DNA of 49,894 bases from Janthinobacterium sp. (GTDB taxonomy: Bacteria > Pseudomonadota > Gammaproteobacteria > Burkholderiales > Burkholderiaceae_D), in NCBI GenBank assembly GCA_003133225.1, contig PKWL01000097.1:1-49894 (forward strand), written 5' to 3'. This document shows positions 5,291 to 17,489 of this stretch, piece by piece. The notes beneath the pieces are model-generated. The model saw nothing but the letters and a program-made list of their open reading frames with translations. It searched no databases and was not told where the DNA came from. Each line of letters begins with the position of its first letter. Positions within the stretch are counted from its first letter, which is position 1. The position numbers were made by a program, and so were the translations under genes.

Positions 5291-5419
5291 TGAGGCGATT
5301 TAAGCAAATTTTCGCCTCGAAAAGTGAGTTGATTTAAGGATAAATTGCCTGTGGGTTGATTATTCGCTAGTATCGCATCAAAATATGAGTCGATTGTGTG
5401 CTATATTCGCCTCACGAAT
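5291..5419. promoter_or_regulatory. Repeated palindromes upstream of fic (candidate operators)
   Basis: TTTTCGCCTCGAAAA (5309-5323) and ATTCGCCTCACGAAT (5405-5419) are both palindromic and share the core TCGCCTC. An inverted third copy, TGAGGCGA, sits at 5291-5298. The second palindrome ends 16 bp before the preferred start codon. Such repeats suggest autoregulation, perhaps by the winged-helix-like C terminus of the Fic protein; this is inference. Confidence 0.45.
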
Positions 5420-5435
5420 TGCTCAAACAACGTTC

Positions 5436-6581
5436 ATGCAAGCACAACACTTCATCTGGCAAGACCCAGGCTGGCCCAAGATGCACTACAACCTTGCATT
5501 GGTTAGCGTCGAAGTTGCCCTCGCCAGACGCGCCCAAGGTGTGGTCGAGGGAAAGTTGGCCGCGCTCGGATTTGTGCAGCGCACGGCCCTTGCGGCGGAG
5601 GCTTGGAGCCAGGAAGCAGTTGCAACTGCGGCGATTGAAGGCGAGCGATTGGACCTCTTGGCGGTTCGGTCCTCAGTCGCCCGCAGACTAGGCTTAGGTA
5701 CTCAGAGGGGGCCCGACATCCCAAGACACGTCGACGGTCTGTTGGACATCATGGATGATGCTGTTAACAAATCGGCCGACCCGCTGACCCATGAACGCCT
5801 ACAAAACTGGCAAGCTGCCCTCTTTCCAACTGGATATTCTGGGATGACGAGGATACGCGTTGGCGCTTACCGCGAGCACGCCGAGCCGATGCAGATCGTC
5901 AGCGGTCGAATTGGCGGCGAGAAGATCCATTACGAAGCTCCTCCCTCCGCCCAGGTAGAGGCTGCAATGGCAGGGCTGCTCGATTGGTTCAATACGAGGC
6001 AGGAGCGGGATGGTCTTGTCCAGGCGGCGCTTTCCCACCTGTGGTTTGAGACTATACATCCGTTCGAGGATGGCAATGGCCGCGTTGGCCGTGTCATCGT
6101 TGACCTGGTTCTGGCGCGCGACAGTGGTGAGGCTAGCCGACTAATGCGAATATCTCAACGGCTGCTTGAAAGGCGTGAGGACTACTACGGAGAATTAGAA
6201 CGCGCGCAGCATGGCGCGCTGGATGTGACGGCTTGGGTCGTCTGGTTTGTCGCACAAGTTCGCATAGCGTGCGAACAGGCCTCAGCCATCATCGATCACT
6301 CCCTGGAGAGGGGGCGGTTCTGGCACACCCACGGCGACAAGGAGCTCTCGCCTCGGCAACGTAAAATGCTCAATGCGCTGCTTGACGCTGGTCCCTGCGG
6401 ATTTGAGGGCGGTATGAGCACGAAGAAATACGAGAACCTGACAGGCGCCTCACGGGCGACATCATCGCGTGACCTCACCTTGCTTGAGGACATGGGCTTG
6501 TTGCTCCGCGCGGGCAATGGCCGTTCCACCAGGTACTATCTAAACATTCCAGGCTGGGGACAGCAGGAGGAAGGCAAATAG
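5436..6581 (+). CDS. Fic family protein with DUF4172 N terminus (class II, self-inhibited)
   Basis: Fic proteins transfer AMP (or another phosphate-containing group) from a nucleotide to a target hydroxyl. The 381-residue product starts with a DUF4172-type segment (HFIWQDPGWP). It carries an inhibitory helix TAAIEG at residues 64-69, matching (S/T)xxxE(G/N), and the complete catalytic motif HPFEDGNGRVGR at 208-219. The C-terminal ~70 residues look like a winged helix (YENLTGASRATSSRDLTLLEDMGLL). The inhibitory glutamate lies N-terminal to the Fic core, which defines class II. An upstream ATG at 5385 is in frame, but DUF4172 proteins normally begin just before the FIWQ motif, so 5436 is preferred. 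No clear ribosome site is seen for either. It stands alone in element A with operator-like palindromes in front. Confidence 0.9.
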   Translation: MQAQHFIWQDPGWPKMHYNLALVSVEVALARRAQGVVEGKLAALGFVQRTALAAEAWSQEAVATAAIEGERLDLLAVRSSVARRLGLGTQRGPDIPRHVDGLLDIMDDAVNKSADPLTHERLQNWQAALFPTGYSGMTRIRVGAYREHAEPMQIVSGRIGGEKIHYEAPPSAQVEAAMAGLLDWFNTRQERDGLVQAALSHLWFETIHPFEDGNGRVGRVIVDLVLARDSGEASRLMRISQRLLERREDYYGELERAQHGALDVTAWVVWFVAQVRIACEQASAIIDHSLERGRFWHTHGDKELSPRQRKMLNALLDAGPCGFEGGMSTKKYENLTGASRATSSRDLTLLEDMGLLLRAGNGRSTRYYLNIPGWGQQEEGK

Positions 6582-6948: not shown

Positions 6949-7762
6949 TCATCGCAGCGGTTTGACCCGTTCCGGCTTGCGCCGGTAGACTCGCTCGGTG
7001 ATCTTGCTGTCCGCATGTGAGAGTAATGAACGGGCGTGTTCAAGCGTCGATGCGTCACTCGCGCACTTCGAACGGAGATCATGTTCGGTGAACTTTGCTT
7101 CAACTTTCGTCTCCTTCAGCACGCGTGCGGAGAATCCCCGCCACATCGAGTCCCAGCCGCCTGCGCGGCTGGTTTCTTCATTGTAATAGGACTCGCCACG
7201 CCGGTTGCAAAACAAGAATAGCGTCAGTTTCACCGGCCTGGCGGCCTTCGCCATCGAGACGGCTTCGCGTAATTCATCTGACCATTCAATGATCAGCCTC
7301 TTGCCGGTGGTGTTTGCGGTCTCGTGGGGTGCAACGTGAATTTCGTCCTCCCGCAGATCGGACATCGTCAGGCGAAGCAAGTCGCCACGCCGCATGCCTG
7401 TCAGCAATTTGATCCGGATATAGGCCTGCACGGCCAGCACGCTGCCAGCCTTACGCTTCGATGTCAGCGCCAAACATTCGACGACTTCCCAATCTTCGAT
7501 ATATCTAGTGCGCGGGCGCTCGCCTGTAGGCGGACCTCTCCCTTGAAGGATGGCGGTCAATGAGGCCCCATTCGACCGCCTTGGTGAATGCGTGCGACAG
7601 GATTTCGATCTCGCGGTGTGCAGCAGTCTTTGCGGCACGCTTGTCGACATATAAATAAACATGGCGCGGCTTCAGTTCCAACCAACATAAGTGCGGCGCG
7701 ACTTTACCTTTCGAGTACCGGTAAAGCATCGGATATGAAAGTCGTCCGATGGGGGCGTGCAA
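6949..7762 (-). pseudogene. Tyrosine integrase of element B (frameshifted)
   Basis: The catalytic half (6949 to ~7510) retains the expected residues: arginine in LLTGMRRGDLL, HxxR as HDLRSKCASDA, the histidine of LLSHADSKITERVY and the tyrosine in that same stretch. The N-terminal half continues in another frame (7560-7762: VDKRAAKTAAHREIEILSHA, KAVEWGLIDRHP). The frame is lost twice between about 7515 and 7560, and the true N terminus seems missing. It sits next to attachment copy 2, reading toward it, as integrases of tRNA-targeting elements usually do. The element can no longer excise by itself unless a related integrase acts in trans. Confidence 0.85.
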
Positions 7763-8221
7763 ATCTGCGGATAGGGCGAGGCCAGAACTTCACGTCTAAA
7801 TCGCGATGTGCTATCAGACTCGACATTATCGCAAGTAATGTCGAGTATGATAAAAAGCATCCGGTTTCCAATGATGCCGCGTCCATGAGATCCGAACACA
7901 GTCCAAATATTGAGGTCGCTCGAAATCGAATTGGTCTCCCGGTCAATTCGGCGGCAGCAGTTGCGCAAGTGAAGATTGACGCAACCTTCAAGCCTGGACC
8001 ATTATCATTGGGAAAGGGAACGACAGTAAAAATCCCAATGAAGGGGTTCCCCTGCACCTCAGAACCCGTGAACGCTTTGAAGATACCACTTTGCTACTCC
8101 TGAGAGACGCGGACGCGGGCGCCAGCATCACCTCAGCCTCGCTCTCATCGGTTTTGCACTTAGTCTGCGGCATTCGATCGCAGCCAACTAAATTTAATGG
8201 CCTTGTTCACTTAAGAACAGG
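7763..8221. other. Intergenic, no gene recognised
   Basis: Both strands show open frames (for example a 171-codon frame ending at 8103), but none resembles a known protein and they overlap each other and the integrase remnant. The upstream part may hold decayed integrase N terminus. Confidence 0.4.
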
Positions 8222-8264
8222 TTGACAATGCCCATAATGGGTACCACAATACCCGTTATGGGTA
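8222..8264 (+). promoter_or_regulatory. Promoter with two tandem operator palindromes
   Basis: A perfect TTGACA at 8222-8227 is followed 17 bp later by a weak CACAAT at 8245-8250. TGCCC-N5-GGGTA (8229-8243) and TACCC-N5-GGGTA (8250-8264) share half sites and spacing, with centres 21 bp apart, i.e. two helical turns. The second overlaps the preferred start codon. The arrangement suggests that the winged-helix domain of the encoded nucleotidyltransferase represses its own operon. Confidence 0.6.
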
Positions 8265-8899
8265 CATATGCAGATGCTTTATTTACGAAGACGCAACAGC
8301 GGGTACTAGCGGTGTTGTTTGGTCAGTCGCATCGTTCATTTTATGCCAATGAACTGATTGGTTTGGCGGCGTCAGGTTCAGGAGCCGTCCAGCGGGAGCT
8401 GGCGCGGCTGGAGGCGTCTGCCTTGGTCACTGTGCGGCGGATAGGAAATCAGAAGCATTACCAGGCCAACCACGACGCCCCGATATTTAATGAGCTTCGG
8501 GGTATTGTCGTGAAAACATTTGGCGTGGCCGATGTACTTCATGCGGCACTGCAGAACCTGATTCCGCTTGTGGATGTGGCATTTATTTACGGTTCGCTGG
8601 CCAAGGGCACTGAGCATGCCGGTAGTGACATCGATTTGATGGTAATCGGTAGAGTGCCATCGAATGCGGAATTGCTTGAAGCATTACTGCCAGCTCGCGA
8701 GCAGCTGGGACGCGCGGTGAATCCAACACTTTATACACGAGACGAATTTGCGCAACGCCTGAGTGACGGAAAATCGTTCATTATGCGCGTGCTGGAGCAG
8801 CCCAAAATCTTTGTGATAGGAGCAGAACATGACATCGCCCGACTCGGCAGCGCTGGCGAATCTGGCGCGCATTGGCAAACTGAAGGCGGAGCCGCCTGA
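8258..8899 (+). CDS. Winged-helix/nucleotidyltransferase fusion (MNT antitoxin-type)
   Basis: A 213-residue protein with two parts. Residues ~8-75 form a MarR/ArsR-like winged helix (FTKTQQRVLAVLFGQ, ELIGLAASGSGAVQRELARLE). Residues ~100-150 hold the minimal nucleotidyltransferase signature GS-x10-DxD (G112 S113 ... D124, D126). In MNT/HEPN modules the nucleotidyltransferase modifies and silences the HEPN toxin. The next gene is a HEPN-like protein overlapping by 71 bp, so the pair is translationally coupled. In-frame TTG 8222, ATG 8228 and ATG 8237 also exist; 8258 is chosen because relatives as I recall them start just before the FTKTQQ block and because the upstream codons lie in operator repeats. 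The transcript might then be nearly leaderless. Confidence 0.85.
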   Translation: MGTYADALFTKTQQRVLAVLFGQSHRSFYANELIGLAASGSGAVQRELARLEASALVTVRRIGNQKHYQANHDAPIFNELRGIVVKTFGVADVLHAALQNLIPLVDVAFIYGSLAKGTEHAGSDIDLMVIGRVPSNAELLEALLPAREQLGRAVNPTLYTRDEFAQRLSDGKSFIMRVLEQPKIFVIGAEHDIARLGSAGESGAHWQTEGGAA

Positions 8900-9248
8900 C
8901 GCGAGGGAACGGGCTGGTTTATTACGCTCGGCATCCGTCCGTTTACAAGATGCCAGGCACGCGACTCTCGCATTGGAAAGTCGTTTCGACCTCGCCTACA
9001 ATGCTGCCCATGCGGCTGCATTGTCCGCTCTTCGTGCCTATGGCTACCGCAGTGAAAATCGTTATCTTGTTTTTCAGTGCCTGGAGCATACGCTGGGATA
9101 CAAGCCGTCCCAGTGGCTATTGCTTGACCAAGCGCATAAAAAACGTAACTTGGCTGAATATGAGGGTGATCTCGATGTTACGACAAGTTTCGTTGAAGAG
9201 TTGATCGAGCAGACGTCGAACCTCATTGTTGCCGCCCAGGCACTTTAA
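8829..9248 (+). CDS. HEPN-domain protein (toxin partner of the nucleotidyltransferase)
   Basis: A 139-residue, all-helical protein typical of HEPN domains in size and pattern (SRFDLAYNAAHAAALSALRA, NRYLVFQCLEHTLG). The conserved site is HKKRNLAEYEG at 103-113: the R-N pair (106-107) and Y111 fit the HEPN R-N...Y region, but the usual histidine after RN is absent, so RNase activity is uncertain. AGGAG about 7 nt before ATG 8829 supports the start inside the upstream gene. Coupling with an MNT-type gene strongly suggests a type VII-like toxin/antitoxin pair; which member is toxic is inferred from known systems. Confidence 0.82.
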   Translation: MTSPDSAALANLARIGKLKAEPPDARERAGLLRSASVRLQDARHATLALESRFDLAYNAAHAAALSALRAYGYRSENRYLVFQCLEHTLGYKPSQWLLLDQAHKKRNLAEYEGDLDVTTSFVEELIEQTSNLIVAAQAL

Positions 9249-9495
9249 CCATTAGCAAGCTCAAAAATGCCGCAACAGACTTTGCGCTTGCCAGGGGGTG
9301 GATGCAGTGGGACCATCGCGTCGTTGGGCGCAAAATCATCCGCTGTGCAGCCCACAGACTGGCGGGGCTGAAGTTCGCATCGAATGCAACCTCAATAGCC
9401 GATTCTTTCAAGATGCCGTGCCACCTTTATTACGATATGAGTTTAACCCTCGTTCCGGCAGCTGAAGGGTTGCTGTTGGCTGCAAGATTCGTCAA

Positions 9496-10005
9496 TCATT
9501 GCAGACTACCCCACCGCTCCACTGCCGGTTCCGCCACCGCCCACTTCCACGCATCGTTGCTCCGACAAGCGCTGCCGGTATACCAAGCACGCTTGAACAG
9601 CTCGCCCTCACCCGTATCGACCGACAACATCACTTCCTTGCACAAGGCCAACGGGGTGTCGATCAGGCCCGTGACGCGCACTTCTCCATGTTCGTTGCCG
9701 TAGGATATGCGATGGACGATTGCCCAGCGGTGGGACTGGCCTACATCTAGCTTGCCGATGACTGCCGCGATTTCATCCTGCTCGGCTTTCTGCCAATTGC
9801 GCAACACATATTTGAGCGTGGCATCGGTTGCAGATTGAACACCTACGCCAATAGCGTAGCCGACTACCGGATTGGAGGTGACTGCGCCGCTGGCGACTCC
9901 TGCAGCAGCGCCGGCAAAGCCGCCGATGCTGCTGCAGCTGCTAAGTGTTGCCGCTGCTGAAAGCAATAAAGGGCAGCCAATGGCGCTGATGCACCCCCGC
10001 CGCAT
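9496..10005 (-). CDS. Putative lipoprotein, paralogue of its upstream neighbour
   Basis: A 169-residue protein with an N-terminal hydrophobic segment and a lipobox-like LSSC near residue 24, followed by a Gly/Ala-rich stretch. Its C terminus (DAWKWAVAEPAVERWGSLQ) matches that of the upstream gene (ATWKWASAEPATERWGALQ). The preferred ATG overlaps the upstream stop codon by one base (TGATG), so the pair is co-translated. A longer frame upstream to 10158 lies inside the neighbour and is rejected. Function unknown; probably membrane-anchored. Confidence 0.68.
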   Translation of the reverse strand: MRRGCISAIGCPLLLSAAATLSSCSSIGGFAGAAAGVASGAVTSNPVVGYAIGVGVQSATDATLKYVLRNWQKAEQDEIAAVIGKLDVGQSHRWAIVHRISYGNEHGEVRVTGLIDTPLALCKEVMLSVDTGEGELFKRAWYTGSACRSNDAWKWAVAEPAVERWGSLQ

Positions 10006-10547
10006 CACTGCAATGCTCCCCAGCGCTCGGTTGCTGGCTCTGCCGATGCCCATTTCCAGGTTGCCCCGGAACGGCAGATGGTCGCTACGTAAAATTGACT
10101 GTCCGGCTTGTCGAACTGAGCGACTAGGCCATCGACGGAAAACACAATTTCTTTGCAACTCATGTCCTCGCTGCCAATCACGCGACTCACGGTTACCCGG
10201 CCGCGCTCATTGTCCTCAATTGGCAGTGCGTGCAGGATTTGCCAGTTTGCCACAGCTCCAACAGCCAGCTCGCCGGCGACATTGGCAATGACGTCCTGCT
10301 CCTCGCCATGAACCTTGCGCTGACCATATTGCACACCAGCGCGCACCGCAGCTTGCACACCAAAACCAATTCCGGTGGCGATCGCATCGTTTTTGGTAAC
10401 CTTGCCCGCCAACGCGGTACCGGCAACCCCAGCCGCAGCAGAACCACCCTGTGTCAATACGGAACTACAGCCACTCAATCCGAACACCACGCACAACACC
10501 ACCAAGCCACTTAGGACATTGGATATCTTTAACTGTTTTAAATGCAT
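10005..10547 (-). CDS. Putative lipoprotein, tandem paralogue
   Basis: A 180-residue protein starting MHLKQLKISN, with a hydrophobic helix and lipobox LSGC at residues ~24-27, then a Gly/Ala-rich segment (GGSAAAGVAGTALAG) that resembles glycine-zipper stretches. The last ~100 residues align with the downstream gene, including the shared motif CKEI/VxFSVDxG and the WKWA...ERWG ending. A TTG start at 10559 would add four residues. The pair probably arose by tandem duplication. No function can be assigned. Confidence 0.7.
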   Translation of the reverse strand: MHLKQLKISNVLSGLVVLCVVFGLSGCSSVLTQGGSAAAGVAGTALAGKVTKNDAIATGIGFGVQAAVRAGVQYGQRKVHGEEQDVIANVAGELAVGAVANWQILHALPIEDNERGRVTVSRVIGSEDMSCKEIVFSVDGLVAQFDKPDSQFYVATICRSGATWKWASAEPATERWGALQ

Positions 10548-10644
10548 AGCAGAATCCAATATGTTTGCATCGATCGCATTGATTGTAGTGGATCTTGATT
10601 TTCCGATAATGGTTTAGTGTTACCAGATTGATGGAGAACAGGCA

Positions 10645-10797
10645 ATGACCGAAGTGAAGAAGAAGCGAGAGATACCGACCCAGGATAACAAGGCGAAAAT
10701 TGCGCTTGAAGCCATCCGGGGAGTCAAGACGATTAATCAGATTTCGCAGGAATATGGCATGCATGGGGAAGTGAAATTTGTTTTTGGGTTCGCGTGA
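10645..10797 (+). pseudogene. IS3-family OrfA fragment
   Basis: A 50-codon frame whose first 40 residues (DNKAKIALEAIRGVKTINQ, ISQEYGMH) match the helix-turn-helix N terminus of IS3-family OrfA. Similarity stops abruptly after MH and the frame ends 10 codons later. No OrfB or terminal repeats are recognisable. Confidence 0.6.
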
Positions 10798-11070
10798 CGG
10801 CATATGGCTTCATGATATTTGCGCATCCGATTTGACATTTGAATCACTACTAACGGGAGGTGGCTTCGGCCGCTCAGGGGCGACAGCTGCCCCGTCTGGC
10901 ACATATCCCGAGTGGCTCCTTTCAGTCTTAAGCAGCCGGTGAATCGTCGCACACCCCCTATCGCGAATTGGCTGTTATCAGACCGTCAATGCCATCGCCA
11001 CCGCCACCAGGCAGGACTCCATGCGCCAGTCGTACCGCAACGGGCTATGGATTCCCTTCTACGCGGGTGC
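10798..11070. other. Intergenic, no gene recognised
   Basis: Between the IS3 scrap and the frameshifted exported protein. No open frame with protein-like content was recognised. Confidence 0.4.
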
Positions 11071-11489
11071 TTATTTGGCGTTGTCGTGTGCTGCCAGTCC
11101 GACCGCTTTGTAGTCGTAAGTGGGGTAGAACTCGGTCCTGTAACTGCCCAGGCAGTATCTTCCAAGATGCGGTTGACCTCGCGGATACGCGATGCCGGTA
11201 GGCGCAGGGTAATCACCTGTCCAATGCCCATGGTGACGTACCAGCTGAGCACTTCTATGCCAGCCGGCGGAAATGCCTTATAGAAACCTTGTTTCGTCAG
11301 CTGAGCGTTAAGCTCGCTCAATGGACGCGATTGATCATGCTTGAGAAAGATCGTCAGCAGAATCGCATTATCCGGCGTGGCGCTGGTGGCGGGTGGCGGT
11401 GTCACAGTCACCGACTGCGCATTTGCGCTGCATACGGCAAAACAGGCGAACAACAGCGCAGTAATTACTGAACGAAATACGTGACCCAT
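11071..11489 (-). pseudogene. Exported protein, frameshifted near the C terminus
   Basis: The gene begins MGHVFRSVITALLFACFAVC with a clear signal peptide ending near ANA, and AAGGAG lies 6-7 nt before ATG 11489. The mature part includes NAILLTIFLKHDQSRPL and GIEVLSWYVTMGIGQV. Near 11145, after EDTAW, the frame slips: the natural ending YRTEFYPTYDYKAVGLAAHD continues in another frame and stops at 11071, whereas the uninterrupted frame runs on with low-complexity residues to 10986. Either the gene is freshly broken or there is a sequencing error. Function unknown. Confidence 0.65.
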
Positions 11490-11592
11490 TGCCTGCTCCT
11501 TCAAATGTTATATTGTAGGTTGTCATTGGCGCAGCCTTCCGAATGGCAGATAGGTGCTGCGCTGGTGTGCCAGTCGGGTTTGCGTGCATATA

Positions 11593-11644
11593 TTCATAGC
11601 CTATCCGGGGTTCGAATCCCCGTCTCTCCGCCAAGGATAAGTAG
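11593..11644. repeat. Attachment-site repeat, copy 3
   Basis: Identical over 52 bp to the 3' part of the intact tRNA-Ser (548-599). It marks the right boundary of element B and begins the decayed copy of the element A end. Confidence 0.88.
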
Positions 11645-12022
11645 TTGATTCAAAAGACAAAAAAGCCGGCCTTTGCGTCGGCTTTTTCACATCGGTTGCG
11701 CTATTTGGCGGGAATTTGTGCATTGGAATAGCCCAATATCGTTCTGCAAGCGCTTGGTTTTATTGAGTAAAGCGTATTCCATGTGCAGGTGCGCGCCCTA
11801 TACATGGCTTTAATTTTTAAATTCTCTCGGCGTCGAGTAGCGTTGCCGTGACGCATAGCCACAGCAAATGTCAGCTAGGGAGTCGAATAGCAGTCACAGC
11901 ACAGTTCTGCAATTCACGCCCCATCGCGTTCCTGTCTACGGTGCTTGCCCATTCAGACGCTGGTGGTGTAGGCATCCCCCAAACAGCGCGGGATACCTGT
12001 TGTAATAATGGCCCGGCCTGGC
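11635..12022. repeat. Second copy of the element A end, with the zincin gene deleted
   Basis: Matches 589-863 and then 1716-1812, including the terminator (11663-11686) and the TTGCGCTATT site (11696-11705; partner AATAGCCCAA at 11727-11736 has one change). At the junction it keeps the stop and last codons of the zincin gene (TCACGCCCCATCGCG on the plus strand), then jumps straight to the sequence before the zincin start. It is therefore a deletion derivative of an element that once carried the gene. Confidence 0.78.
11663..11690. terminator. Terminator copy beside attachment copy 3
   Basis: AAGCCG-loop-CGGCTT with flanking A and T runs, a diverged copy of the tRNA-Ser terminator at 617-642. 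Confidence 0.7.
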
Positions 12023-12204
12023 GCTGCAGGCGCATGTACAAGGCAAAAAATTCAGCAGTTCAGCACATGGGCTCCCCGGCCTGACCGAGCTAATCTGTCG
12101 CCTTCTCAGACAGCAGCAGCCAATGTTGGTACGCGGCAACTGCGACTTCGGCAATGAGCGCGTCATGCGCCAGCTTGAAGATATCGAGCGACCCTTAAGC
12201 AATC

Positions 12205-12932
12205 AAGCAATGTCAAACGGTTGATCGAGCGCCATTGGCACCGGCGTGAATGGTGCGATGCCGGCCAAGGCTGGCAGGCATGCGATCTGACGCTGACTGG
12301 GTGGACCCAAGAGCGCCGCGTCATTGTGATGCGGCATTCGATCAGGGATAGCCTGGTGGCGGAGGCGACAAAACCCAAAGGCACCAGCAAAAAATCGACC
12401 CAAAAAGGTGCGCAGAAATTCGATGAGAATGGTCCCGTCAAGGTTTGGGAGTACGCCGTGCTCGTTACGAATTCGCGTTACCTCATTGAACGTATGGAGC
12501 AACTTTACCGTGGCCGTGCCGACCGAGAGAACGGTTTCGACGAATTAAGAATCAGTGGGGATGGGGTGGCTACAGCACCCAGGACATTGAGATGCAACTT
12601 GAGCGCGAGAGCTGTTGCCCTCGTGTATAACTGGTGGAGTGGGTACGCGACTAGTGCATCCGAAAGCCAGATTAGAGGCAATCACGAGTAGACCACTGCT
12701 GCTCGCTGCCGTTGGACGAATCACGGAAAGTGGCGGGCAGCGCCGCATATTGCTCTCGATAACACATGCTGCGTCAGCACATGTCAAAGCGTTAGTGGCC
12801 AATGTCCGTGCAGGTTTGCAGCACATCCTGGCAACTGCGCCTCAGTTACCGTCTACGCAGCGCTGGCAGAAATCAGTGCGCTATATCGTCGAAAAAATCC
12901 TTGGCGCCACAGCCGAAAATCCCGCGCAATGA
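12205..12932 (+). pseudogene. DDE transposase remnant (IS4/IS1380-like)
   Basis: Recognisable transposase blocks lie in two or more frames: NVKRLIERHWHRREW, LYRGRADRENGFDEL, then in a shifted frame QWGWGGYSTQDIE, CNLSARAVALVYNWWS, EAITSRPLLLAAVGRI and VRAGLQHILATAPQL. The N-terminal half, with the first catalytic aspartate, is absent. The YRxRxxxENxFDEL block is the conserved glutamate region of DDE enzymes. Frameshifts near 12545 and 12640 kill the gene. The exact IS family is uncertain, and terminal repeats were not found. Confidence 0.72.
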
Positions 12933-13014
12933 CTGCGCCGCCCCTCCTTATGACGAGCTAACAGAGAAATCTAGGTTGATGGGCGGCGCTGGCCGCTGCG
13001 CGGCTATCGAAGGA

Positions 13015-13277
13015 CCGCGATGGCACGACACGCGTCGAGCAGCGTCAATTTGGCGCGTTCAAGCGGGACCGGTGCGCACTGGCCGAATGGGCGGTGGCGC
13101 TTGTCCCGGACCCGGTGGTCATGGAAAACACGGGCATTTACTGGAAAAGCCGTACGCGGCGCTGGCGGCGGCGGGCATCCGCACTCCAGTCGTCAATGCC
13201 CGGCACGTCAAGAACGTCCCAGGGCGCAAGACCGATGCAGCCAGCAACGCGCTACCCGAGTTCGCTCCTCACGCCTA
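13015..13277 (+). pseudogene. IS110-family transposase fragment
   Basis: Parts of the DEDD N-terminal domain appear in three frames: VEQRQF, LAEWAVALVPDPVVMENTGI, PYAALAAAGI and VVNARHVKNVPGRKTDAA. This is the classic IS110 order. The start, the middle frame and the whole C-terminal domain are missing. Confidence 0.75.
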
Positions 13278-14083
13278 AGTCCGCACCGATCTTTAGGTTG
13301 AGCTTCATGTGAACCTGATCGGCACGCGCGTTACAGAGATCGCCATAGGCGAGCATCTCGACGCTCGCCTTTATTTCGCAATGCCATGCGCGTTGGCGGA
13401 CCCGCACGCAGCCTGCGTCCCAGCGATGTCCTTCTGCACGGGACGGGATAGCCCACGACCCAGGAGACGTTTGTCGGGGGCCCCGACCGATGTGCTGGCC
13501 AAGCTTGAACTGTAGCGTACCCGTATTAATAGTCCATTTGAGTAACGTGGGCATTGTTGAGAGAGGAGCTCTAACATTCATTAAAAAATCGTAGCGACTA
13601 AACTTACGAAACATATGAAAGCCCACCTGCATGGCGCCAGCGCACGGTCCACAGATGCAAACGGTAAAAAGGCCGCATCTACGTAACTTGGCACCTGGCG
13701 GGGCAACAGCGCACTAAAATTTTTAGGCAAATAACTGGAAATGGTAGAGCCTCAGCAAACTCGCATAAAAACAACGGTGCCGTCGCCAAACAGATCAGGA
13801 ACTGCTGGATGAACGCAAAAAGGTAAGGTAGAATTAAATTTCCGCAGGCGCGTGATGCGTGATTACCTCTGAGAATTGGTGATATTGACCGATGGAAATT
13901 AAATGGGAATTTAAATTAAAGGAAGGGTGGCGACCGTAAGAAAGTAGGCTGGCCGATTGATGGTTTTATGATTGATGGTTTATATCTCCAAATTGAATGA
14001 GCACCAATGTATTGCAAATTTCCGGGTTCCATTCGGAATTCTAGATGGTATTCAAATACTATGAAAAGAGGAGAGCCATCAAG
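13278..14083. other. Intergenic, 0.8 kb without a recognised gene
   Basis: A plus-strand frame (13309-13515) and a minus-strand frame (13252-13632) overlap here but neither resembles a known protein. From about 13,690 the sequence becomes visibly AT-richer and contains stop codons in all frames. It probably spans the end of the island debris and the promoter region of the cytochrome operon; no clear -35/-10 pair was identified. Confidence 0.45.
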
Positions 14084-15421
14084 ATGGACTCGTTCATGTC
14101 GCGCTGCTTGGGATTTAATTATTTACGCCTCCTGGCCCTGATTCTTGCCATGCAAGGCCTTTTGAGCCCGCTTGTAGCCCAGGCGTTGCCAGCTTTCGCA
14201 AGGCAGACCGGGCAAAATTGCGTGGCTTGTCACGCTGGCGGTCAATTCCCGGAGCTCACTCCCTACGGGCGCTTGTTCAAGCTAACGGGCTACACGATTG
14301 GCACCCGCAGCAACGTCCCCTTGTCCGTGATGGGAGTAGCAAGCTTCAACAAGAGTTCGACTCCAACCAATGACCCGACATTTTCCAAAGATGGGTCTGT
14401 CATTTTTCAAACCGGCAGCGTCTTCCTGGCTGGCAAAATCACTGATAATGTGGGCATGTTCGCACAAGCGACCTACAATAATTACGACAGCCAAAATCCT
14501 GACTCCGGTAACTGGCAAGGCAAGTGGGCGTCCGACAACTTCGATTTACGTTACGCGGACCGCTTCATCGATGGGGGCCAAGACTTCATCTTCGGCCTTA
14601 GCCTAAACAATAATCCTTCCCTCGCCGACCCATGGAATACGGCTCCGGCGTGGATTCAATATGTTCCGACCCAATTTGGGGTTACCGGCCCTGATGCGAC
14701 CCCCATCATTAGCCAACTCGGAACTCAGGCTGCCGGCATAAGCGGCTATGCCTTCTTGAACAAGACATTGTATGTGGAGGTGGCGGGGTACCAGACCGCT
14801 AATGGGGCTTTGTCGTTCTTAAGCCAGGGTACGGCGAATGCGGATCAGACCAAACTCAAAGGTGTTAATCCTTATTTACGGGTGGCACTAAGTCATGACT
14901 GGGGACCCCATAGCGCGATGGTCGGCATGTTGGCCATGAATGCTGCCATTTACCCGGATAACTTGAATCCGGGAGGGCCGACGACAGATTATCGCGACCG
15001 CGGCATTGATGCCCAATATCAATATCTGCTCGATCCAAATACCATCACCGCGCAGCTGAGCTATATCAGAGAAACTATCAGCAATGGTGATGTAACCGGC
15101 GTCGCCACGAATGCGACCAATACCTTGAATCAGCTCAGACTGAAGGGCAGCTACATTTATCATGCGAAGTACGGCGCGAGCCTCAGCTACTTTAGTACAA
15201 CGGGAACGTCGGATGCCACCTTGTACCCGGATGTCGCCACAAACCCCGATACCCGCGGTTGGGTTCCAGAATTGTTCTGGACGCCAGTCCAGAACATTAG
15301 GATTGGTGCTCAATATTTTGCATTCAACCGTTTCCACGGCGCGTCAAATAACTACGATGGGGCCGGCCGCGACGCAAAAGACAACAACACACTGTTTCTT
15401 TATGTCTGGGGAGCATACTAA
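14084..15421 (+). CDS. Cyc2-like fused monoheme cytochrome c / outer-membrane porin
   Basis: A 445-residue protein with a signal peptide (hydrophobic 14-34), one heme site CVACH (46-50) and the flanking pattern FPELTPYGRLFKLTGY, followed by ~370 residues of alternating polar/aromatic beta strands ending in LFLYVWGAY. The terminal aromatic-rich strand is typical of outer-membrane barrels. Heme near the N terminus, the (F/Y)GRxFKxxGY block and the barrel form the architecture of Cyc2, the outer-membrane iron oxidase of Acidithiobacillus and neutrophilic iron oxidisers. GGAGAG 8 nt before ATG 14084 supports this start over ATG 14045. A diheme cytochrome follows. Base composition is lower in GC than the core genes. 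Substrate oxidation (Fe(II) or other) is inference; similar cytochrome-porins of unknown substrate are common in betaproteobacteria. Confidence 0.8.
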   Translation: MDSFMSRCLGFNYLRLLALILAMQGLLSPLVAQALPAFARQTGQNCVACHAGGQFPELTPYGRLFKLTGYTIGTRSNVPLSVMGVASFNKSSTPTNDPTFSKDGSVIFQTGSVFLAGKITDNVGMFAQATYNNYDSQNPDSGNWQGKWASDNFDLRYADRFIDGGQDFIFGLSLNNNPSLADPWNTAPAWIQYVPTQFGVTGPDATPIISQLGTQAAGISGYAFLNKTLYVEVAGYQTANGALSFLSQGTANADQTKLKGVNPYLRVALSHDWGPHSAMVGMLAMNAAIYPDNLNPGGPTTDYRDRGIDAQYQYLLDPNTITAQLSYIRETISNGDVTGVATNATNTLNQLRLKGSYIYHAKYGASLSYFSTTGTSDATLYPDVATNPDTRGWVPELFWTPVQNIRIGAQYFAFNRFHGASNNYDGAGRDAKDNNTLFLYVWGAY

Positions 15422-15639
15422 ATGGAAAACTACAGCGCACACGGACGCTTCGCTACGCCAACGCGCCCCAGAAATTTGGGGGGCTCAACAGCGATTTCAT
15501 GCTTGAACCTGAACTTCCCTATTGGGCGGTCGCGTTCGCTGCGCAATCGCGCGTGGCTCAATCTTCTAGGCCGCCTATTGGTCCCCGGATGCAATGAGCG
15601 CGGGGATCACATGCTCATGGGGATCAAAGGAGAATCCAG

Positions 15640-16278
15640 ATGACCAGAAATTTTTTTCCGATCGCACTCCTGACGGCCTTTCTTGCATCCGGTTGCAGTA
15701 ATCTCGAGCGCTCGCGAGCCCTTGGCAATCCGGATGTGTCGCCGGCTGTTACCGCGGTTCAGGTTTGCTCTAACTGCCACGGTGTCGACGGCAATTCGGT
15801 TTCGCCCAATTTCCCGAAATTGGCTGGCCAGCAGCAGGAGTACATCGTCAATCAACTGAAGGGATTTCGCAGCCATAACCGCTCCGATCCCGCTGGCTTC
15901 GAATACATGTGGGGGATCGCGCGCCACCTGACCGATGAGCAAATTACTGGGCTGGCCGAGTTCTATTCGAAGCAGACGTCGCGGCCGGAAATGGCTGGCG
16001 CCGACCCTGCGCTGCTAGCTGCCGGCAAAACAATCTTCGACAAAGGCGTGCCGGAAATGAACGTAATTGCCTGCACATCTTGTCACGGACCCAAGGCCCA
16101 AGGGATCGGGGCCTTCCCCAAGCTGGCCCACCAGCACGCTAACTATGTCGTGAAGCAACTAGATATCTTCCAGAATACCCAGGGGCGACCGGGCACTCCT
16201 ATGGAATTCGTCACGCATCCGCTTACCGGCGGAAACAAAGACGCCGTCGCCGCTTACCTGCAGGCATTTCCGGATTGA
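15640..16278 (+). CDS. Diheme c4-like cytochrome lipoprotein
   Basis: A 212-residue protein with lipobox LASGC (Cys19) and two heme sites, CSNCH (43-47) and CTSCH (145-149), in two homologous halves. Candidate axial methionines are M90 (EYMWGIARHLTDEQ) and M186. The fold is that of cytochrome c4, and the lipid anchor would hold it at a membrane on the periplasmic side. AGGAGA stands before ATG 15640. It lies 218 bp after the Cyc2-like gene, mirroring the order cyc2-cyc1 in acidophilic iron oxidisers where Cyc1 is also a diheme c4 type. It is the natural electron acceptor of the barrel-fused heme; this partnership is inference. Confidence 0.88.
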   Translation: MTRNFFPIALLTAFLASGCSNLERSRALGNPDVSPAVTAVQVCSNCHGVDGNSVSPNFPKLAGQQQEYIVNQLKGFRSHNRSDPAGFEYMWGIARHLTDEQITGLAEFYSKQTSRPEMAGADPALLAAGKTIFDKGVPEMNVIACTSCHGPKAQGIGAFPKLAHQHANYVVKQLDIFQNTQGRPGTPMEFVTHPLTGGNKDAVAAYLQAFPD

Positions 16279-16314
16279 TTCGAAGCACTATCAGTCCGTC
16301 AATTGGAGCCATTA

Positions 16315-16881
16315 ATGAAAAAATATTTTGTATCTTGTGGATTGACCATGCTATTGGCGGCGCCAGCTTTTTCCGCGGAAACCTACACTTTCGACCCGGA
16401 GTATACGATTCCGGTATTCGAAGTGGGTCACTTGGGATTTACGACCCAACGGGGGCGGTTTGACAAGGCGGAGGGTAAGGCCGTATTGGACTTTGGAGCA
16501 AAAAAAGGCAGTGTCGAGTTCACGGTATTTACCAGTTCACTTGACATGGGATCACGGGCTTGGACTGTGCATGTGAGTTCCGAAGGTTTGTTCAATATCG
16601 AAAAATATCCGACCATCACGTTCAAGTCAGATCGGCTTCTTTTCGATAACGACAAGGTCGTCGCTGCGGAGGGGCAATTCACCCTTCTTGGGGTAACTAA
16701 GCCGCTTAAGGTGACAGTCAATCGTTTCGCGTGCACGACCAACCCTCTCAATAAGAAATTCATGTGCGCGGGAGATATTACTGCAACCATCAAACGCTCC
16801 GATTTTGGCATGACCAAGTACATTCCGACGGTTAGTGACGACATCAAAATTAACGTTCCCGTTGAGGCTTACAGGAACTGA
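16315..16881 (+). CDS. YceI-family periplasmic protein (first copy)
   Basis: A 188-residue protein with a signal peptide ending near AFSA, then the YceI lipocalin-like barrel (YTFDPEYTIPVFEVGHLGF ... GVTKPLKVTVNRF ... RSDFGMTKYIP). YceI proteins bind isoprenoid lipids such as quinones in an open barrel. TTGGAG precedes ATG 16315. The stop overlaps the next gene start (ATGA), so the two YceI genes are coupled. An insertion with two cysteines (FACTTNPLNKKFMCAG) is shared by both copies and may form a disulfide. Confidence 0.9.
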   Translation: MKKYFVSCGLTMLLAAPAFSAETYTFDPEYTIPVFEVGHLGFTTQRGRFDKAEGKAVLDFGAKKGSVEFTVFTSSLDMGSRAWTVHVSSEGLFNIEKYPTITFKSDRLLFDNDKVVAAEGQFTLLGVTKPLKVTVNRFACTTNPLNKKFMCAGDITATIKRSDFGMTKYIPTVSDDIKINVPVEAYRN

Positions 16882-17489
16882 TGGTGGGTTTTTGGATGCT
16901 CTGTCGGCGGGCGATTCTTGTCGGGCGGCTATTCGGTGTGGCCGCGCTATCGACGATGCTCGCGGGACCCGCGTTGGCAGCAGACCGCTACACTATGGAC
17001 TCGCTACACAGCATCCCCGTATTCGAATTCTCCCATTTGGGTGTTACCACCCAAAGCGGACGTTTCGACAAGGCGAAGGGAACTGTTGTCCTCGATCTAG
17101 TTGCACATAACGGCAGCGTTAACTACGAGGTGGAAACCGCGACGCTGAACATGGGTTATGGTACGGAAACGCCCGATTCTCCGGGATACCGTTTGTTTGA
17201 TGTGGCGAGATTTCCAAAGATCATATTCAGGTCGACCAAGCTGATCTTTGACCAGAACAATGCAATCGTTGCCGCGAAAGGCGAGCTGTCCTTGCTGGGC
17301 GTGACCAAACCTCTGACGGTGCAGGTCAATCGCTTCAAATGTTCAGTAAATCCGATGAACAAGAAGAAGATGTGCGCTTGCGAAGTCACGGCCACCATCA
17401 AACGTTCGGAATTCGGGATGGTCCGGTATCTACCGGGTATCAGTGACGAGGTTACGATCAGCGTCCCGGTCGAAGCCTACAAAGAATAA
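16881..17489 (+). CDS. YceI-family periplasmic protein (second copy)
   Basis: A 202-residue paralogue of the preceding protein (YTMDSLHSIPVFEFSHLGV; GVTKPLTVQVNRF; RSEFGMVRYLPGISDEV), with signal peptide ending near ALA and the same cysteine-containing loop (FKCSVNPMNKKKMCAC). The ATG overlaps the upstream TGA by one base and has AGGA 5 nt upstream. It is the last gene of the cytochrome operon. Possible roles are isoprenoid-quinone carriage or storage, or protection of the c-type cytochrome chain; nothing in the sequence decides between them. Confidence 0.9.
   Translation: MVGFWMLCRRAILVGRLFGVAALSTMLAGPALAADRYTMDSLHSIPVFEFSHLGVTTQSGRFDKAKGTVVLDLVAHNGSVNYEVETATLNMGYGTETPDSPGYRLFDVARFPKIIFRSTKLIFDQNNAIVAAKGELSLLGVTKPLTVQVNRFKCSVNPMNKKKMCACEVTATIKRSEFGMVRYLPGISDEVTISVPVEAYKE

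What the first reader, a model, noticed from the sequence alone, without database searches (positions are those of the whole stretch)
14084..17489. Cyc2-like cytochrome-porin with c4-type cytochrome and two YceI proteins
The first gene has the exact Cyc2 layout: signal peptide, one CXXCH near the N terminus followed by a FPxL...(F/Y)GRxFKxxGY block, then an outer-membrane beta-barrel. The next gene is a diheme c4-type lipoprotein, as Cyc1 is beside Cyc2 in acidophilic iron oxidisers. Two tandem YceI proteins, members of an isoprenoid/quinone-binding family, complete the set with coupled start codons. I know of no described role for YceI in a Cyc2 pathway. The block lies at the end of an island array and looks lower in GC than the core, so it may have been acquired. 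It may carry electrons from an external donor (Fe(II) or other) to the periplasm. Donor and direction are inference.
Basis: partly seen in the sequence, partly recalled or inferred. Interest (0 to 1): 0.82.

Follow-up and report, generated by a model that had tools for sequence, protein, structure and literature searches.

The report
Cyc2 electron-uptake operon with YceI partners
The window holds four genes in a row, for a predicted heme-plugged outer-membrane pore (Cyc2 type), a predicted two-heme electron carrier and two YceI proteins, and because the order cyc2, carrier, YceI recurs in ten other genomes spread over three bacterial families, YceI is likely a working part of a pathway that would carry electrons from outside (perhaps from iron) into the cell.

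Summary
The first protein carries the published Cyc2 signature (ALPAFARQT-GQN-CVACH), models as a 16-strand porin barrel, and in the tree lies on the side of a Cyc2 encoded near a rusticyanin-like gene, well apart from Mariprofundus Cyc2. The gene order is conserved: cyc2-c4-YceI-YceI in three more genomes of the family, cyc2-c4-YceI with a single YceI in seven genomes of two other families. These YceIs form one clade apart from ten other YceIs. YceI follows the c4 subtype (one change on the c4 tree) rather than Cyc2 (four changes, same rows; one Cyc2 clade rejected, p 8e-6); one exception, a YceI-type c4 without YceI, makes it two against five. In the window a c4-YceI-YceI piece sits behind a Cyc2 of another lineage. 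I read it as a Cyc2-c4 electron-uptake operon whose c4 is served by an operon-specific, predicted quinone-binding YceI, most likely as an antioxidant kept reduced by c4; donor, direction and quinone are untested. No paper in the library searched holds both names. New variant of a known kind.

The parts
14084..15421 (+). cyc2-like: predicted N-terminal mono-heme domain fused to a predicted 16-strand outer-membrane barrel, 445 aa
   Evidence: AXPXFAR[QK][TY] motif and CXXCH read (motif published in PMC8406198); AF2 model; porin matches; trees
15422..15639 (+). 218-nt spacer between cyc2 and c4, filled by a 73-codon open frame whose ATG follows the cyc2 stop directly and whose stop overlaps the c4 start; the ten other YceI operons have -16 to +59 nt here
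   Evidence: a remnant of a lost native c4 was tested and not shown
15640..16278 (+). diheme cytochrome c4-type predicted lipoprotein (Cyc1-like), 212 aa, lipobox ...FLASG-CSN
   Evidence: Pfam; best PDB match 1h1o cytochrome c-552; lipobox in 21 of 25 c4 examined
16315..16881 (+). yceI1, operon-specific YceI with signal-like N terminus, 188 aa
   Evidence: PF04264 4.5e-32; best PDB match 5ixg YceI; tree
16881..17489 (+). yceI2, second YceI, 53% identical to yceI1, start codon overlaps the yceI1 stop
   Evidence: PF04264 1.6e-26; own clade

Best explanation
The block is a Cyc2-type operon that would likely take up electrons at the cell surface: a predicted outer-membrane heme-plugged barrel (Cyc2) would hand electrons from an outside donor, likely Fe(II), to a predicted membrane-anchored diheme c4 (Cyc1-like), and the YceI proteins encoded behind the c4 are predicted to be periplasmic quinone carriers that work with the c4. 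Committed mechanism: one electron at a time leaves the donor at the mouth of the barrel, passes the single Cyc2 heme on the periplasmic side and reaches the lipoprotein c4 beside it; the c4 delivers most electrons to soluble cytochromes or an oxidase. Some electrons keep ubiquinone bound in YceI reduced, so that YceI can quench lipid peroxyl radicals that Fe(II) and O2 chemistry makes at the outer membrane, in the way proposed for BcnA with cytochrome b561 LcoA, with c4 in LcoA's place. Shown by sequence: the genes, motif, conserved order, an operon-specific YceI clade, YceI following the c4 subtype more closely than Cyc2. Predicted: the barrel, the lipid anchor. Inferred: heme loading, Fe(II) as donor, inward direction, quinone in YceI, contact of c4 and YceI, the antioxidant role (the weakest step).
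Against: The heme domain is modelled poorly (residues 28-58 under pLDDT 50). Named hosts of the closest Cyc2s (Collimonas, Duganella, Undibacterium, Herminiimonas, Glaciimonas) are not, to my recall, known iron oxidisers. YceI is dispensable for Cyc2-c4: of 27 family genomes with a Cyc2 match at E under 1e-50, 4 have this YceI. One c4 of the YceI type, L078 in the same genome as L084, has no YceI in the 1.9 kb left on its contig; with it the counts are 2 changes on the c4 tree and 5 on the Cyc2 tree. The seven single-YceI operons were found through YceI, so nothing follows on how common they are, and c4s of this type without YceI were not sought. c4 hemes usually lie above ubiquinone in potential (recalled), so full reduction of a quinone by c4 is uphill. 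BcnA is also reported to capture antibiotics (PMC5350466, listing and start of abstract). The Cyc2-RuBisCO association in the family is weak (8 of 27 against 23 of 168, Fisher p 0.047). No expression, heme or ligand data.
Confidence: 0.45

Rival explanations
1. Quinone shuttle: YceI takes electrons from c4 in its bound ubiquinone and carries them to the inner-membrane quinone pool, so that Cyc2 electrons enter the pool without passing the bc1 complex backwards.
For: YceI follows c4; two hemes in c4 match a two-electron quinone; Cyc2PV-1 at 208 mV lies not far from ubiquinone (for the Cyc2 value; quinone value recalled); Ubi-8 found in a YceI from periplasmic extracts (PMC9113575).
Against: No evidence that YceI quinone exchanges with a membrane; c4 hemes are usually above ubiquinone (recalled); most Cyc2-c4 loci examined lack YceI.
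Confidence: 0.2
2. YceI does a job without redox: it binds isoprenoids, lipids or drugs and helps to build or guard the outer membrane around the cytochrome-porin.
For: YceI structures hold various isoprenoids (PMC9113575 passage); a YceI lipocalin is reported to capture antibiotics (PMC5350466, listing and start of abstract only).
Against: Closer association with the c4 subtype than with the barrel points to the carrier, not the porin.
Confidence: 0.2
3. The operon uses another donor than Fe(II) (Mn(II), humics, a soluble mediator) or runs outward as a sink for electrons.
For: The clade is far from the Mariprofundus rows and PMC8406198 calls much of clusters 2 and 3 unverified; named hosts of close relatives are, by recall, mostly heterotrophs.
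Against: Shares the tree side with a Cyc2 near a rusticyanin-like gene and has a Cyc1-like partner.
Confidence: 0.3
4. Mere co-inheritance: c4 and YceI stay together by linkage and YceI has no part in the Cyc2 route.
For: Only some Cyc2-c4 loci have it; one YceI-type c4 (L078) lacks it; genes in one short cassette move together.
Against: 11 operons in three families with mostly differing flanks, an operon-only YceI clade among the 25 proteins compared, overlapping starts, and both duplicates kept in 4 of 4 carriers.
Confidence: 0.1

Closest known systems
Cyc2 cytochrome-porins and the cyc2-cyc1 pair of the rus operon (PMC8406198, PMC7029218, PMC10654088: passages read)
   Same: Signature motif, one heme site, predicted 16-strand porin, diheme c4 encoded next; tree side shared with a Cyc2 near a rusticyanin-like gene.
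   Different: No rusticyanin match in the own genome; c4 carries a lipobox; YceI behind the c4; AGGQF after the heme site, longer than in the Mariprofundaceae row; far from the Mariprofundus rows.
BcnA/LcoA YceI antioxidant operon (PMC9113575: abstract and passages read)
   Same: Best solved match of yceI1 is 5ixg (recalled to be BcnA); YceI encoded with a heme electron carrier.
   Different: Carrier is a c-type diheme protein, not cytochrome b561; two copies of the same YceI type and none like the weakly matching YceI that I call BcnB-like; separate YceI clade. The own genome has such a pair elsewhere (contig C157).
Cbp2D of Cellvibrio japonicus (PMC8981238: passages read)
   Same: YceI-like quinone-binding domain tied to two c-heme domains.
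   Different: Fused, with a carbohydrate-binding module, studied for LPMO activation; no cytochrome-porin.

Membership tests
Cyc2 | AXPXFAR[Q/K][T/Y] upstream of a single CXXCH | tested here: met
   ALPAFARQT-GQN-CVACH; same spacing as the Mariprofundaceae row L057; 41 of the 43 ORFs printed have it, a list already filtered for an F.R before the heme site
Cyc2 | PXL shortly after CXXCH | tested here: met
   PEL five residues after CVACH, paper says four
Cyc2 | Length of at least 365 aa | tested here: met
   445 aa
Cyc2 | C-terminal 16-strand outer-membrane barrel | tested here: met
   AF2 prediction, 16 strands, pTM 0.77; OmpF-type porins best
Cyc2 | Place among the Cyc2 clusters (FeGenie HMMs 1-3) | tested here: inconclusive
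   On the side of a Cyc2 near a rusticyanin-like gene and apart from Mariprofundus rows, 100/100; the cluster HMMs and a cluster 3 anchor were not at hand
Cyc2 | Covalent heme and Fe(II) oxidation | not testable with these tools
   needs biochemistry
Cytochrome c4 (Cyc1-like) | Two CXXCH cytochrome c domains | tested here: met
   Two stretches of PF00034; 1h1o over residues 35-209
rus operon | cup, coxBACD and rusticyanin genes beside cyc2-cyc1 | tested here: not met
   Neighbours are YceI and an SDR gene; no rusticyanin match in G000
YceI | PF04264 over its cut-off | tested here: met
   111.9 and 93.9 bits, cut-off 23.7
YceI (BcnA/LcoA system) | Cytochrome b561 gene beside the YceI gene | tested here: not met
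   c4 and cyc2 upstream, SDR downstream
YceI | Bound isoprenoid or ubiquinone | not testable with these tools
   known for other YceI (PMC9113575)

The most novel reading that the evidence does not exclude
A new branch of extracellular electron uptake in which an operon-specific YceI lipocalin is the quinone-bearing partner of the Cyc2-side c4: electrons go surface donor, Cyc2, lipoprotein c4, YceI-bound ubiquinone, quinone pool, giving Cyc2 organisms a direct periplasmic entry to the quinone pool; c4-YceI travels as an exchangeable module between Cyc2 lineages.
Probability: 0.15. Interest if true: 0.85.

Novelty: new variant of a known kind. Interest (0 to 1): 0.62.

Why it matters
How electrons leave Cyc2 on the periplasmic side is an open part of the iron-oxidation model. 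A conserved partner gene that follows the electron carrier, found here in three families, names a protein that can be deleted or purified to test it, and it would give YceI, a common family with few settled roles, a place in electron uptake. It also warns that finding cyc2 alone does not tell which carrier set comes with it, since the carrier set appears to have been exchanged.

Tried and rejected
Remnant of a lost native c4 in the 218-nt spacer: a DNA match to L061 scored 21 against a shuffle maximum of 16, but its near twin L062 only tied the maximum and the other five loci stayed below theirs; the protein test failed for native c4s (120 of 1000 shuffles as good for L061; best native L068, 33 of 1000) and its best score was to a YceI-type c4 (L075, 15 of 1000), uncorrected for 17 comparisons. 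Dropped.

Whole block acquired as one: not supported, since Cyc2 and c4 trees disagree. Differential loss of two ancestral c4 types is not excluded, only less simple. The AU tests for the window alone are modest: Cyc2 of the window with the G087/G037 Cyc2s p 0.031, window c4 with 13 native c4s p 0.016, and that test left L091 out of the native set. The five-row test (p 2.5e-29) left out L080, a close sister of the rows held, so I use the six-row test (p 4.3e-7). The groups tested are defined by YceI, but I had seen earlier trees before most of these tests.

Strict rule that YceI always goes with this c4 type: broken by L078, which I had first dropped because its c4 frame breaks near two N; I put it back.

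Mariprofundus-type Cyc2: rejected as the closest kin. YceI near Cyc2 in L089: a distant YceI pair with other genes between. L124 has tandem YceI genes without cyc2 in view. Empty-site comparison in the genus: matches to the flanking genes lie at separate places in relatives, no empty site found. Promoter and terminator scans gave about as many sites as shuffles. A PDB sequence search with cyc2 found nothing. PMC12442345 was searched for six terms and none occurred. The genome with a rusticyanin match over the curated cut-off (G811) had no Cyc2 match; the anchor genome G865 matches at 137 bits, under the cut-off of 146.7.

Rows dropped: of the 25 c4, L062, L064, L065, L078, L093, L106 and L117 were left out of the c4 tree, and the distant Cyc2 rows and L073 out of its Cyc2 tree; L067, L068 and L092 were in the trees but had too little sequence downstream to score YceI; L119 and L110 were left out as long branches. 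Genomes G005 and G035 (fragments) were not counted as Cyc2 carriers; G021 was counted although its pieces are cut by contig ends.
Full report

The second gene encodes a diheme c-type protein with a lipobox; its best solved match is 1h1o, listed as cytochrome c-552 (2.3e-33), which I recall to be the Acidithiobacillus ferrooxidans Cyc1/CYC41. A lipobox is present in 21 of 25 c4 proteins found beside cyc2. No Asp follows the Cys, which by the E. coli rule (recalled) would put it on the outer membrane. The two YceI proteins are 53% identical; the best solved match of the first is 5ixg, recalled as BcnA of Burkholderia cenocepacia.

WHO ELSE HAS IT. Cyc2-like genes occur in 29 of 195 sampled genomes of the window's family and 85 of 398 of the phylum, so the Cyc2 itself is ordinary. 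Of 58 loci with a long Cyc2 frame, the window included, 25 have a c4 beside it. In the window's genus, 12 other sampled genomes hold no intact copy; one, G005, has two pieces. Close named Cyc2s come from Glaciimonas, Undibacterium, Collimonas, Duganella and Herminiimonas.

THE YCEI PART. A search of 392 family genomes with yceI1 shows a cliff: 419, 376, 341 and 334 bits in four genomes, whose own second YceI comes next, then 172 bits for the best hit in any other genome; more distant YceIs (up to 47% identity among the listed rows) are common (292 of 392 genomes have some match at E 1e-40). All four have cyc2-c4-yceI-yceI. Three are also found by name in GTDB: Oxalobacteraceae bacterium palsa_996, Burkholderiaceae bacterium MAG_BA346, uncultured Oxalobacteraceae MJ-time_bin-6643 (contig lengths agree with G087, G037, G042). 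A search of 394 genomes of the order with yceI2 at E 1e-52 gave 15 genomes, the own one included. I looked at the surroundings of 11 of the 14 others: seven, in families f266 and f7, have cyc2-c4-yceI with one YceI; four (L178, L181, L182, L183) have YceI without cyc2 in view, two of them (L178, L182) beside an ORF that I recognise as cytochrome b561-like. G1415, G1394 and G1486 were not fetched. Flanking genes of the seven differ, apart from two pairs of close relatives. Beyond genomes, 338 proteins match yceI2 at E 1e-30, the closest at 73-74%, among them a Rhodocyclaceae MAG protein at 68% (no context available).

HISTORY. In a tree of 25 YceI proteins the 15 from cyc2 operons form one clade (99/94) against the 10 others, of which five lie beside a cytochrome b561-like ORF recognised by eye; yceI1 and yceI2 are each one clade of the same four genomes. 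On a c4 tree the 11 c4 proteins with YceI behind them are one clade (97/95), and the four with two YceIs one inside it (100/99). On the Cyc2 tree the same 11 fall into four places: the window within the Collimonas-Glaciimonas group, L075 within the group of L071, L074 and L076, L188 with the G087/G037 copies, and the other six together. Counted on 22 rows with enough sequence, YceI changes once on the c4 tree and four times on the Cyc2 tree; a single Cyc2 clade is rejected at p 8.3e-6. Against this: L078, a second such locus of G087, has a c4 of the YceI type (84% to L084 over 120 columns; frame broken near two N) and no YceI in the 1.9 kb left on the contig; counting it gives two changes on the c4 tree and five on the Cyc2 tree. 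Earlier tests agree with the conflict: six Cyc2 rows held together p 4.3e-7; L075 c4 with its Cyc2 sisters p 0.0008. So the c4-YceI piece has most simply been exchanged behind resident cyc2 genes, and the window's odd 218-nt spacer fits that, though no remnant of an older c4 could be shown. Several rows are metagenome bins, and assembly error cannot be excluded for any one of them.

PLACE AMONG CYC2. As an anchor I used G865, which has a rusticyanin-like gene (137 bits, under the family cut-off of 146.7) about 7 kb downstream of one Cyc2 on the same strand, with ORFs that I recognise as cox and ctaA between. With it and with Mariprofundus rows named, the tree splits at 100/100 into a Mariprofundus side (which also holds L117 of the same order) and a side with both G865 Cyc2s and the window. 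Inside that side the window and the G865 rows are far apart, with weak forks between. The tested neutrophilic Cyc2 is from Mariprofundus ferrooxydans PV-1 (208 mV); I cannot say which Mariprofundus row is that protein. PMC8406198 says that much of clusters 2 and 3 is unverified.

HOW IT PROBABLY WORKS. Established elsewhere: Cyc2 accepts electrons from Fe(II) (PMC8406198); a c4 is Cyc1 in the rus pathway (PMC10654088, passages); YceI proteins hold isoprenoids, in one case Ubi-8 from periplasmic extracts, and BcnA with LcoA lowers lipid peroxidation, for which the authors suggest that LcoA reduces Ubi-8 in BcnA (PMC9113575, abstract and passages); Cbp2D fuses a YceI domain to two c-heme domains (PMC8981238, passages). 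Put together with the finding that YceI goes with the c4 subtype, the likeliest reading is that c4 is the redox partner of YceI. I commit to the antioxidant version because it is the redox role of a YceI with mutant evidence among the papers read here, and because Fe(II) with O2 makes radicals (recalled). Antibiotic capture by BcnA is another reported role (PMC5350466, listing only). A quinone shuttle is the bolder version.

HOST. The own genome has a RuBisCO large subunit (786 bits, cut-off 438) with CbbX (521 bits, cut-off 459) and an ORF between them that I take for the small subunit by recall (no NCBIfam match). None of 12 other sampled genomes of the genus has a RuBisCO match. In the family, RuBisCO (300 bits or more) occurs in 8 of 27 genomes with cyc2 and 23 of 168 without (Fisher p 0.047), not corrected for kinship. 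It allows, and does not show, lithotrophic growth. Contigs C91 and C134 belong to one assembly with 2.7% estimated contamination; flanking genes of the window match the genus at 66-83% DNA identity in the longer matches.

LITERATURE. In the open-licence library, YceI with Cyc2: 0 papers; YceI with iron-oxidizing: 1, a biomining omics review, listing seen only; YceI with c-type cytochrome and operon: 1, on Cbp2D, listing only; YceI with cytochrome c4: 1, on Legionella secretion, listing only; Cyc2 with Collimonas: 0; Cyc2 with Oxalobacteraceae: 3, listings only. Subscription papers and preprints were not searched.

Noticed in passing
window 15422-15643: A 73-codon open frame starts right after the cyc2 stop and ends in an ATGA overlap with the c4 start; it may be a coupling leader or chance.
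   Followed up: partly
own genome G000:C134:13412-14335, locus L152: RuBisCO large subunit with CbbX and a LysR regulator; no RuBisCO match in 12 other sampled genomes of the genus.
   Followed up: partly
own genome contig C157 (L128, L130): Another YceI pair, one copy close to the operon type and one only weakly so; the host has YceIs beside the two of the operon.
   Followed up: partly
L089, L105: Cyc2-like genes with what looks like a multicopper oxidase gene nearby (recognised by eye, not tested); in L108 a small cupredoxin-like gene follows the Cyc2-like one.
   Followed up: no
G010 (L083, L089, L090): One genome with five Cyc2-like matches on four contigs.
   Followed up: no
L078 (G087:C344): A YceI-type c4 behind a Cyc2 but no YceI in the sequence left; the same genome has a locus with both YceIs (L084).
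   Followed up: partly
G005:C87 (L029, L115): Same-genus genome with only two fragments of a Cyc2-like gene, apparently decayed.
   Followed up: no
window 7588-13713: Long stretch whose ten tested ORFs have no Pfam match (a nucleotidyltransferase-like ORF at 8222-8899 does), between a Fic gene (5385-6581) and the cyc2 block; tRNA-Ser at 498-588.
   Followed up: partly
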